The notes beneath the pieces were generated by a model. That model saw only the letters and a program-made list of their open reading frames with translations, searched no databases and had not been told where the DNA came from. Below, piece after piece: positions 21,829 to 41,706 of a stretch of 56,321 nt of DNA (positions within the stretch are counted from its first letter, which is position 1; every line of letters starts with the position of its first letter). Both the position numbers and the translations under genes were made by a program. The stretch is from Phanerodontia chrysosporium (lineage: Eukaryota > Basidiomycota > Agaricomycetes > Polyporales > Phanerochaetaceae). Location of the stretch: NCBI GenBank assembly GCA_001910725.1, contig MJGA01000070.1, positions 1-56,321 on the forward strand, given 5' to 3'.

Positions 21829-21953
21829 ACCCACAGGACCGTGCACACGCGTCGTGGTGGTCGCCCTTGGCGACCATTGCCGAGCAGCGATTTATTCATG
21901 ACAATGCAGCCGATACAAAAGCCATTTGATGTACATGACGATACAAAGGTAGT

Positions 21954-22951
21954 TTACGCTGCGATATCACAATCATCGTTAGCAGCGAGAATCTGAAGGG
22001 CAGCAACGAAGGTCTCGTTGTCGGCAAAGGCCTGGTATCCCATGGCCTCCATGCAGTCCGCCAGCTCCGGGAGGTCATGACGTTCCACAAGGTGCAGAAG
22101 CCCAACAAAGGTGGCAGGCTCTCCGTGTTTGTGCATACAGTTCGACTGCGGATACATTGTTGATTAGTGTGGACCTTGCTGAGAAATAAGCAGCATCTGC
22201 ATACAATGAATCTCTGCGCAGCGATCCAACCGTTGCTCCACGGCCCGTCGGAGATCAACTCCGAGATGACCTTGCGGGCGCGATCGGCCAAGTAATGCTC
22301 CTCGGAGCGACGGACGGCGACGCTGGGGTCTTCATCGTCACCCAGCAGAGTGAGGTCTATGACGAGGCGATCCGTGCGGTCGGAGTGCTGCACTCCACCC
22401 TCGTCGACATTGTCGTCGCTAGACAGCGTCAGGTCAACGACTTCGTGTTCTTTGTCCTCGTCCTCGTCGTCCTTGTCGTCGTCCTCGTCGTCCTCGTCGT
22501 CGTCCTCGTCGTCCTTGTCGTCGTCCTCGTCGTCCTCGTCGTCGTTGGAGGAAGCATGCGTGGAAGGCTCGTGACTGATGAGCTCCTCTGTGGACATCTG
22601 AGTGTCAGAGTCGCTCCCACGTCCGTCATCGGAGTCCTCTTCCCCATGGGAGTTCGAGTTTTCCTGGAACTGCAACTTGTACACCCAGTCACAGGCAGCG
22701 AGCAACTCGCCAGAAGGAGACCCATTCCTTGTGCTCATCAGCCTAGCGACCTCCTGAGCATCCGGGTCTCCGCTGTGCGCCGCAATCACATCGCGCTACA
22801 AACGCAGATCAGCAATGGTCATAGAAAAGCAGCTGCATCGTACAATTCTCTTCAAGAGCACGTTATAATGAACATATCTGATTCTCTCTCGCGTCAGGAG
22901 GTTCTTGAGCTGAGATTTGAATGTAGCAGGGGCCGTGGGTTGCGAAGCCAT
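21954..22951 (-). CDS. Acidic protein with two SUMO-interacting-like motifs, 296 aa
   Basis: The exons (complement) are 22844-22951, 22205-22795 and 21954-22145. The introns are 48 and 59 nt, and all phases agree. Residues ~105-140 are a pure Asp/Glu stretch built from DDEDD/DDKDDE repeats. It is followed by VVDLTLSSDD and, about 30 residues later, VIDLTLLGDDE. Both match the SUMO-interacting consensus of hydrophobic residues next to acidic/Ser residues. The C-terminal exon is helical (LPELADCMEAMGYQAFADNE). A nuclear SUMO-binding or histone-binding role is possible but only inferred. The gene is divergent from the SNF2-like gene at 23548, about 600 bases apart, so they could share a regulatory region. 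Confidence 0.75.
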
Positions 22952-23547
22952 GACGAGCTCACAGAGTCCGGCAGGTATCCCCAATGCTTTATATGTTCCT
23001 CCAATTTGAATATGGCGCGATCAACGTTCATTCCATTGTCTACTGCGTCAACGTTATCAGATGTCACTGCAAGTTGCCGGACTGAGTACCATCAGAGGCA
23101 CGGAGGTGGTCGCCATCGGCAGCCGTCACGACAGTGACGTACTCATGCAGGCCCAGTCCGCGCGGTCGCCTCTGGCGACCACTGCAACGCTTGGCGCCCG
23201 CAGCTGCTGGCTAAGCGATGTGTCCTATGCCCCGGCTCGGTGCCCAGTGCTCTGGTGAGGCACGCATTACCGCACTAATGAGATGCTCGCAGCACGTCCC
23301 TGCGCCTCAATGGTCACCAATGGCGTGCAAGGCCTGGTGATCTTATTTGCACGGATGAACCAGTAGGATATGGGAGTAACCAAGATGTCTCATCAAAATC
23401 AGGGATTTTTTTTTCGTTTGACTAAATCCCATGAAGCAGATCAACGATGATGGTGGTGCGAGCATCGTACCCTTATATATGACCACAGACCTGTCGGTTG
23501 TGCTTCCCTTCCCACCTTCACGAGAGAGCCCGGCGTACCTCAGCAAA
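22952..23547. other. Spacer between divergent genes with two GTCGCC palindromes
   Basis: This may be a bidirectional promoter region. It holds a palindrome at 23164-23180 (GGTCGCC, three-base centre, GGCGACC) and a degenerate one near 23108-23124. A short T-run lies at 23405-23414. No other gene is seen. Confidence 0.5.
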
Positions 23548-40200: not shown

Positions 40201-41052
40201 CATGCAGAAATCGTCAATCAAGTGAATTCAAGGTAGCACCGGAATGTACTAACCCACTTGCACAGCAATTACGCTGCCACCAGCAGAGACTTGATTCGGC
40301 TTAGTCTGCACAGAAAGTAGTATGAGCAGCGAATATTACCACATGTGTGCTGTGGGTGTACCTCCTCAATGATGCGCTGCACGTAGGGCATCCAGGAATC
40401 TTCAATGTCGGTGGCATTGGTACGGAGTTCGCTCTGGGTGAGACTTGTCGACCAAAGCGCGAGGCCCCCTGCAGTGGTTTCGGCATTGATGTAGGGTCCT
40501 AGGGCCAGAGTATGTGGGTATATGCAGGCATCACAGGAGCGTTGCGCTCAACGTACCTGGCCGTAGGACGATAAAGATGCCCGCCTGTTCAGCCGCCTTG
40601 AACATGGGCTGCAGCGCGCGCCAGTCTTCAAAGTCGAGCACGCCCGGCGCCGGGTTCGTGATTCCCCAATGAATATAGATGCTAAGTGCGTATGAGCGTG
40701 ACGGTTGGCCTCGAGAAGGTGAGGACGCACCTAACACCGTTTAGCCCCGCAGCGACCATCTTCTGAAAGATATCGAGCCAAAGGTCGGGGACAGGAAGAC
40801 GGAAAGTGTGGAACTCGCCCGAGCTTGGGCAAATGAGTTGCATGCGCGCGAGAAGCGACGAGGGACTCACTGGAGGAAGATCCTCTGGCCCTCGACCCAG
40901 AGGGTGTAATTGTCCCATTGCACGGCATCGGTAAGGCCTGTGCTGTGCCTAGGGGGCTCAGAAAGTAATGCCTGAGCGGGAACTTCAGAGTTGGCGACGT
41001 GCGGGGCGAAGAGGAAGAGCACGGCGGCGAGGACGAAAGCTAGGAGCGCCAT
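37295..41052 (-). CDS. Secreted GH35 beta-galactosidase, 14 exons
   Basis: Homology and consistent GT-AG junctions give 14 exons from the ATG at 41052 to the stop at 37295, for roughly 1000 residues, the normal size of fungal GH35 enzymes. The first ~22 residues (MALLAFVLAAVLFLFAPHVANS) form a signal peptide; an upstream in-frame ATG (41175) would bury it, so 41052 is preferred. Family blocks appear in order: HSGEFHTFRLP, SIYIHWG, GPYINAETTAGG, VQVDNEYSQNP (acid/base Glu in NEY), WYMPEFQGGSFDPWGG (nucleophile Glu), GGTNWGG and TSYDYGSA. C-terminal beta domains follow, ending with RVANIGPQ and the last exon at 37295-37486. It hydrolyses terminal beta-galactosides outside the cell, acting on plant hemicellulose or pectin side chains. 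Many NxS/T sites fit secretion. Confidence 0.93.
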
Positions 41053-41706
41053 GACTGGCTTCCGAGTTGAGCTCGATGGCGGTGGACGAGGGGAGCCATG
41101 GCGGTCCTTATGTTCGACCTTTGACTGAATCGAAGGCGGGGGAAGCACAAGGTGCTGTGTGCCCTCTGAGGTCATCGGTGGTCGTGGTCAATGGGTGACC
41201 TCCAGAGCGGGGCACCTGGCAGAGTCGCGTGTCGTCACATCACGAGTCACGCGTCGCGGAGCTGATGTCCGCACGGGCCGAGTCGCAACTCGTTCGCTGC
41301 GACGACAGCCTTCGCAGCGACGACGTGCTGCCAGCTGATCCACGCGATGGTATTTACGGTCGATTCTTGCGGGATTACAGCGAGCTCGATGTCACCCGTG
41401 CCGGTGTGCTCGCCACTGGCGAGCAGCTGTCCCCTCGGGGCCCTTCGCGGACACGCCAACGCGAGCTAAACTGGTGCACACACGTGATGTGAACATCAGC
41501 AGCATCACGCTAAAGATCGGGAGGGATGTGCTTGATTACAGTAGACAGAATACCGTGAGCAGCTTTTACAATTAGAGACTATATACAAACAGAAAAGACA
41601 GGCTTCGTCTATAGATATACGCATTAACACAACATACACCAAAGTTCCTTTTCCCTTCTTCTCGCACTACAACAGCTACAGCATCTAGTCGTGACACTCG
41701 TGAGCA
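41053..41706. other. Spacer between beta-galactosidase and permease genes
   Basis: This combines the beta-galactosidase promoter and the permease 3' end. It contains a perfect 19-base palindrome TGCTCGCCA-C-TGGCGAGCA at 41407-41425, a compensated variant of the GTCGCC family. Confidence 0.6.

What the first reader, a model, noticed from the sequence alone, without database searches (positions are those of the whole stretch)
21859..41425. Scattered GGTCGCCASTGGCGACC palindromes with compensatory arm changes
The palindromes occur in spacers (21859, 23164, 29032, 41407), in introns of both SNF2-like genes (26215, 30838, 30939, 31036, 32083) and in the satellite. Variant arms keep pairing: GCTCGCC/GGCGAGC at 41407, GGTCACC/GGTGACC at 32083 and GGTTGCC/GGCAGCC in several satellite copies. 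Paired changes on both arms argue that the hairpin or dyad itself is maintained, either by function or by a copying mechanism such as template switching.
Basis: partly seen in the sequence, partly recalled or inferred. Interest (0 to 1): 0.75.

Follow-up and report, generated by a model that had tools for sequence, protein, structure and literature searches.

The report
Chromosome-end DNA dyad in fungal repeats
A short mirror-image DNA motif with a fixed three-base gap is scattered through non-coding parts of a repeated, probably chromosome-end segment of a fungal genome; it looks like a protein-binding site kept for its sequence, and the idea that its two arms change together does not hold up.

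Summary
The palindromes are real: 20 window matches at up to 3 mismatches, 0.2 expected. The unit is a 9-3-9 dyad, GTGGTCGCC-N3-GGCGACCAC. With at most one mismatch per arm, 23 of 24 pairs have spacer 3 (spacers 0-15 tried); spacer sequence varies. Exact-arm sites number 69 in the genome, reversed control 1; 49 of the 50 listed lie on contigs carrying copies of one segment, found near ends of the larger contigs, hence probably subtelomeric. It holds two SNF2-like genes and a satellite.

The covariation argument is weak. Between segment copies, 23 distinct arm differences are all one-sided (25 of 30 window sites covered). Over 38 curated sites, 8 paired against 53 one-sided changes is borderline (P 0.053) and absent within the satellite. 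Two of the three quoted examples are CpG transitions.

The dyad is nevertheless retained: paralogues A and B, near saturation at fourfold sites, both carry it in introns 4 and 7 and in none of eight other shared introns. None of 11 sites in 21.9-34.1 kb lies in an A or B exon.

Best reading: a binding site of an unidentified dimeric protein. Neutral satellite remnants and mobile hairpins are rivals.

The parts
14074..14094 (.). dyad, spacer ACT, one unpaired position; outside the left end of the LTR element
21857..21877 (.). dyad, spacer CTT, exact 7-bp arms; outside the right end of the LTR element
23106..23126 (.). dyad with degenerate right arm, upstream of gene A
23162..23182 (.). dyad, spacer TCT, exact 7-bp arms, upstream of gene A
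23310..23330 (.). weak dyad upstream of gene A, aligns with 29030
23548..28297 (+). gene A, SNF2-like paralogue of B; one in-frame stop under my hand-made exon model
25022..25132 (+). gene A intron 4, dyad at 25063-25083 (2 arm mismatches)
26105..26255 (+). gene A intron 7, dyad at 26203-26223 (2 arm mismatches)
29030..29050 (.). dyad upstream of gene B
29324..34083 (+). gene B, SNF2-like protein (SNF2-rel_dom, Helicase_C), 1295 aa, 11 introns set by hand
30814..31084 (+). gene B intron 4, three dyads at 30836, 30937, 31034
32062..32151 (+). gene B intron 7, dyad at 32081-32101 with G5-C13 as A-T
34651..36096 (.). satellite with 17 curated dyads, CpG-depleted; interleaved AACCCTA-N3-TAGGGTT-like dyads
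41406..41426 (.). dyad GTGCTCGCC-ACT-GGCGAGCAG, upstream of a minus-strand beta-galactosidase gene; same locus in C75 and C134

Best explanation
The motif is a 21-bp dyad, two inverted 9-bp half-sites GTGGTCGCC three bases apart. It most likely serves as the binding site of a dimeric DNA-binding protein that acts on the repeated, probably chromosome-end segments of this fungus. Shown: the sequence, the strict spacing, the free spacer sequence, flanks at background likeness, absence from A and B exons, concentration on the contigs that carry the segment, and presence in the same two introns of two old paralogues. Inferred: that a protein binds it, that it binds as a dimer, that the contig ends are subtelomeric, and that the satellite is an array of the same site in which CpGs decay. 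On this reading the two arms agree because each half-site is kept (or inherited) for its own sequence, not because pairing between arms is selected.
For: With at most one mismatch per arm, 23 pairs at spacer 3 and 1 at the other 15 spacings; no such peak for everted or direct arrangements. 13 different spacer trinucleotides in 38 sites. Flank identity among the 21 non-satellite sites 0.21 to 0.40 by position over 20 bases each side. 0 of 11 sites in an A or B exon in 21.9-34.1 kb, where those exons fill 64% of the bases, P 1.3e-5 if sites are independent, which three in one intron are not quite. Introns 4 and 7 of both genes have at most 2 arm mismatches, the other 16 of the first ten introns of each have 6 or more, although fourfold sites are 31% identical (85 of 274) against 27% expected. 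Intron 4 of A and B is no longer significantly alike once the dyads are cut out (P 0.114 against 0.001). Exact-arm sites 69 against control 1; of the 50 listed, 49 on contigs with gene A or B. Two clusters of three at 62-66 bp spacing next to unidentified ORFs on C63.
Against: No binding protein was identified. In the satellite, arm columns vary as much as the rest (11 of 238 against 54 of 1100), so no present constraint is visible there. Outside it the reduction is weak (4 of 112 against 111 of 1507, P 0.18; 2 of 98, P 0.04, only after dropping the weak site 23310, a choice made after seeing the data). Introns are unusual places for regulatory sites. No second species was available. Introns 4 and 7 are also the longest, so the agreement may reflect one old insertion into each. 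30937 and 31034 share part of their flanks by eye, so some dyads arose by local duplication.
Confidence: 0.45

Rival explanations
1. Neutral remnants: an old satellite-like unit of perhaps 60-75 bp spread through one ancestral chromosome-end segment before it was duplicated. The dyads are its best surviving part and have no function.
For: Satellite arms show no constraint. The dyad-bearing introns are 90-271 bp against 48-70 bp for the others, as if something larger than 21 bp had been inserted. The copies compared share the sites, as duplication predicts.
Against: Flanks are at background while arms are nearly identical. With A and B near saturation at fourfold sites, a neutral 21-mer should not survive in both intron 4 and intron 7 of both genes, unless re-seeded later by ectopic conversion, which I could not exclude.
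Confidence: 0.27
2. Mobile hairpin: a tiny self-propagating palindrome, as proposed for mitochondrial hairpin elements, inserts in spacers and introns.
For: Background flanks, absence from A and B exons, conserved stems with variable loops as described for sponge mitochondrial elements (passages of PMC2800124).
Against: No empty site in the alignments, which cover 26 of the 31 sites listed there with 7 to 13 aligned pieces each (at 23312 one copy is gapped). Spacer length hardly varies. Target duplications were not searched for.
Confidence: 0.13
3. Hairpin or cruciform kept by pairing itself, through selection on an RNA stem or through template switching that copies one arm onto the other.
For: The 21-mer folds at -15.9 kcal/mol as RNA. 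Paired changes exist: 41408 (G-C to C-G), 32083 (G-C to A-T), and over all 38 sites the paired percentage exceeds permutation (P 0.035 with 7-bp arms, 0.008 with 9-bp arms). Some one-sided changes between copies restore a pair, by eye (30838, 34845, 35532). Template switching is described as creating and maintaining hairpins (PMC8794818, abstract start and passages).
Against: 23 one-sided and 0 paired changes between copies. The excess vanishes within each class of site: paired percentage P 0.72 in the satellite and 0.098 outside with 7-bp arms, 0.51 and 0.25 with 9-bp arms. Mismatches G.T 21 and A.C 22, so no wobble preference on the + strand. Two of three quoted pairs are CpG transitions.
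Confidence: 0.1

Closest known systems
Homotypic clusters of dyad transcription-factor sites (for example fungal zinc-cluster inverted half-sites, or AP-2 type GCC-N3-GGC; both recalled, from no call)
   Same: Inverted half-sites, fixed spacer length, free spacer sequence, repeated in non-coding DNA near genes.
   Different: No factor known; half-sites are 9 bp; sites also lie in introns and in a satellite; concentrated in one repeated segment.
Mitochondrial repetitive hairpin-forming and double-hairpin elements (PMC2800124 and PMC7218506, passages) and Neurospora GC-rich mitochondrial palindromes (seen only as reference titles in PMC7218506)
   Same: Short repeated palindromes, conserved stems, variable loops, mostly in non-coding places.
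   Different: Here in a 39 Mb multi-contig genome, not an organelle; loop length nearly invariant; no insertion polymorphism seen among the copies compared.
Telomere-linked helicase segments of fungi (term searched, listing; one figure-legend passage of PMC8381367)
   Same: A helicase-like gene repeated near chromosome ends, by inference.
   Different: The genes here match SNF2-type models and were not assigned to that family; no telomere repeat array was found in the assembly.

Membership tests
dyad protein-binding site | fixed half-site spacing with unconstrained spacer sequence | tested here: met
   23 at spacer 3, 1 at the 15 others; 13 trinucleotides
dyad protein-binding site | half-sites conserved more than flanks | tested here: inconclusive
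   between sites yes (flanks at background); between copies 4 of 112 against 111 of 1507 columns, P 0.18; satellite no difference
dyad protein-binding site | specific binding by a protein | not testable with these tools
   no experiment possible; one candidate ORF gave no zinc-cluster match and no homologue
mitochondrial-type repetitive hairpin element | optional presence between related copies | tested here: not met
   no empty site at the 26 of 31 listed sites that alignments cover
mitochondrial-type repetitive hairpin element | conserved stem, variable loop | tested here: met
structure-selected hairpin | compensatory paired substitutions above chance | tested here: inconclusive
   between copies not met (0 of 23 paired); between sites borderline when pooled (P 0.053 and 0.038), absent within classes
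structure-selected RNA hairpin | excess of G.U over A.C on the transcribed strand | tested here: inconclusive
   21 against 22 over 38 sites, but only six of these are intronic in A or B
telomere-linked helicase segment | adjacent to telomere repeats | tested here: inconclusive
   no (TTAGGG)3 in the assembly; copies near ends of the larger contigs

The most novel reading that the evidence does not exclude
The fungus has a dedicated chromosome-end cis-element: a 9-3-9 dyad placed upstream, in introns 4 and 7, and in the downstream satellite of a duplicated pair of SNF2-type genes, held in place since before that pair split. It is bound by an unrecognised dimeric factor that, together with the SNF2 proteins, organises the chromatin of the segments that carry them. 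The satellite's second dyad with telomere-like arms, lying about midway between dyads in several units, would be part of the same array.
Probability: 0.2. Interest if true: 0.72.

Novelty: new variant of a known kind. Interest (0 to 1): 0.45.

Why it matters
If the dyad is a binding site, it is a ready-made bait for finding a chromosome-end protein in mushroom-forming fungi. The case also shows how decay of symmetric CpGs in a palindrome can imitate compensatory evolution, a trap for covariation arguments on short palindromes.

Tried and rejected
Compensatory evolution: rejected as the main argument, though pooled tests are borderline.

A first covariation test with a lax cut-off (223 sites) was dropped because counts at other spacers showed that most of those sites are chance; it too was negative (94 concordant, 91.8 expected). 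The 38 sites were then chosen by hand, weak ones included.

A general partner dyad about 37 bp away: the averaged signal has no clear peak outside the satellite; single cases occur beside 31034 and in L004.

A third SNF2 paralogue on C47, suggested by a 43% row: the 2 kb read (L070) is a gene A copy, 99.4% identical with 8 gap positions.

Spread of the motif over the rest of the genome: 195 of the 382 loose sites lie in the 247 kb held; the other 187, against 138 for the control (148 minus 10), leave an excess of about 49, and sites in unread parts of the same segments are among them.

Zinc-cluster candidate at 11275-12162: pattern seen by eye; no zinc-cluster model at E up to 0.1, no homologue.

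Papers: the arm strings match 4,125 papers holding at least one of four strings; the 12 listed are unrelated by title. Searches listed no paper whose title or abstract start describes such an element, one search found none; most listed papers were not opened. Passages only were read of PMC8794818, PMC8381367, PMC7218506, PMC2800124, PMC7862722 and PMC4352252.

Full report
What was checked. The window is contig C114 of a 39.0 Mb, 145-contig genome. Split genes with short introns, a gag-like LTR element, and named protein hits in Antrodiella citrinella for gene B and in Bondarzewia, Fibroporia and Lentinula for the reverse transcriptase point to a mushroom-forming basidiomycete; the species was not identified.

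The motif. At up to 3 mismatches the window holds 20 sites against 0.20 expected. Reading the flanks extends the arms to nine bases: GTGGTCGCC-N3-GGCGACCAC. In the window plus L004, L065 and L068, arms with at most one mismatch each occur 23 times at spacer 3 and once at all other spacers from 0 to 15; everted and direct pairs show no such peak. With two mismatches per arm allowed, chance pairs appear at every spacer (10 to 39) and spacer 3 has 63. The spacer takes 13 forms in 38 curated sites.

Where it is. Exact 7-bp arms with any 3-base spacer occur 69 times in the genome, the reversed control once. The tool listed 50 of these 69: 49 lie on contigs C24, C41, C47, C63, C66, C77, C79, C85 and C106, which all have matches to gene A or B, and one on C91. 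All 62 matches of the 15-mer GTYGCCACTGGCRAC lie on contigs with gene A or B. A related 15-mer also finds C73, C75, C134 and a place on C112: C75 and C134 repeat the 41408 locus, and C73 and C112 are one locus twice (97.6% identical over 798 bases). Copies of the segment are 95 to 99% identical over pieces longer than 2 kb. They lie near the ends of the larger contigs, for example 1.5-16.5 kb of the 1.57 Mb contig C113, 400-415 kb of the 442 kb contig C63 and 943-946 kb of the 951 kb contig C24; C85, with 142 kb, holds more than one. I therefore call them probably subtelomeric; no telomere repeat array was found in the assembly. The 30 sites matching the full 17-mer are, by their spacing, a few positions multiplied by duplication.

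Covariation. I curated 38 sites by hand: 30 in the window, 17 of them in the satellite, and 8 in L004, L065 and L068, weak ones included. In the 7-bp arms 8 pairs changed on both sides to a matching pair, 1 to a mismatch, and 53 on one side. Permuting the right-arm columns gives 4.69 matching pairs, P 0.053; with 9-bp arms it is 16 against 10.73, P 0.038. Within the satellite it is 6 against 6.74 (P 0.79) and 13 against 13.20 (P 0.61); outside it 2 against 0.58 (P 0.098) and 3 against 2.35 (P 0.43). The paired percentage exceeds permutation over all sites (0.797 against 0.771, P 0.035; 9-bp arms 0.731 against 0.693, P 0.008), but not within either class (P 0.72 and 0.098; 9-bp arms 0.51 and 0.25); pooling two classes of different decay can make such an excess. 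Between segment copies there are 12 left-only and 11 right-only differences and no paired one, for the 25 of 30 window sites covered by alignments; two of the 23 come from a gapped alignment. Some of these one-sided changes restore a pair by eye (30838, 34845, 35532); I did not test gains against losses formally, so a weak tendency cannot be excluded.

CpG decay. Each arm contains TCG, so the dyad holds two symmetric CpGs. CpG observed/expected is 0.55 in the satellite; it is also low (0.39 to 0.71) in four other non-coding stretches and 0.93 to 1.15 in the gene-rich ones, so the depletion is not special to the satellite. In the satellite, CpG columns outside the dyads vary nearly five times as often as others (12 of 62 against 42 of 1038). 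Of 17 satellite dyads, 8 have TG for the left CpG and 9 for the right one read from the opposite strand, 4 both, where independence gives 4.2 (the 4.2 is my arithmetic). T4-A14 and A5-T13 are what two separate decays give, though 32083 lies in a region without CpG depletion. Basidiomycetes show CG-preferring methylation (passages of PMC7862722), and a TpCpG mutation bias is reported for Microbotryum transposons (passage of PMC4352252). Methylation was not measured here.

Why I still think the dyad is kept. Genes A and B are 57.5% identical in protein over the first ten exons (572 of 995) and fourfold sites are 31% identical (85 of 274) against 27% by composition. Their first ten introns have the same phases. 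The best arm mismatch in introns 4 and 7 is 2 and 2 for A, 0 and 2 for B; the 16 others score 6 to 9. Two of ten introns agreeing by chance is 1 in 45, but these are also the longest introns. With the dyads cut out intron 4 is no longer significantly alike; intron 7 was not significantly alike either way. A further pair of weak dyads aligns upstream of both genes. None of the 11 sites in 21.9-34.1 kb lies in an A or B exon. Flanks of the 21 non-satellite sites are at background likeness, and two clusters of three at 62 to 66 bp lie next to unidentified ORFs on C63. Against this, arms do not vary less than flanks in the satellite, and only doubtfully so outside it.

Verdict. A real dyad concentrated in one repeated segment; the compensatory argument is weak; a binding site is the most likely reading at about 45%, neutral remnants next.

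Noticed in passing
window 34884, 35142, 35281, 35568, 36040: A second dyad, AACCCTA-N3-TAGGGTT-like with telomere-like arms, lies about midway between two GGTCGCC dyads in several satellite units.
   Followed up: partly
window 14134-21823: LTR retroelement with about 690-bp LTRs (14134-14823 and 21134-21823) and a gag-like ORF, inserted between two dyads that lie 88 bp apart in other copies, for example on C63.
   Followed up: partly
window 3171-6983: Reverse-transcriptase ORF, Penelope-like by eye (label recalled); Pfam gives RVT_1 just below its cut-off, with named homologues in basidiomycetes. Stretches within 0.2-3.2 kb recur about 8.1 kb further on, flanking the ORF.
   Followed up: partly
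window 1190 and 9292: A perfect palindrome of 24 bases (CGATCGCTGCTC/GAGCAGCGATCG) in the repeated stretches flanking that ORF.
   Followed up: no
window 11275-12162: ORF with a C-x2-C-x6-C-x9-C-x2-C-x6-C stretch and heptad-like repeats, like a fungal zinc cluster by eye; no Pfam or homologue support.
   Followed up: partly
window 24104: In-frame TGA in gene A under my exon model; may be a mis-set intron or a broken copy.
   Followed up: no
window 22452-22545: Tandem repeat coding an Asp/Glu-rich run in a minus-strand ORF beside gene A.
   Followed up: no
C85:120149 copy, window site 30939: The centre base of the dyad is C in the window and eight copies and G in this one, as an inversion of the dyad would give.
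   Followed up: no
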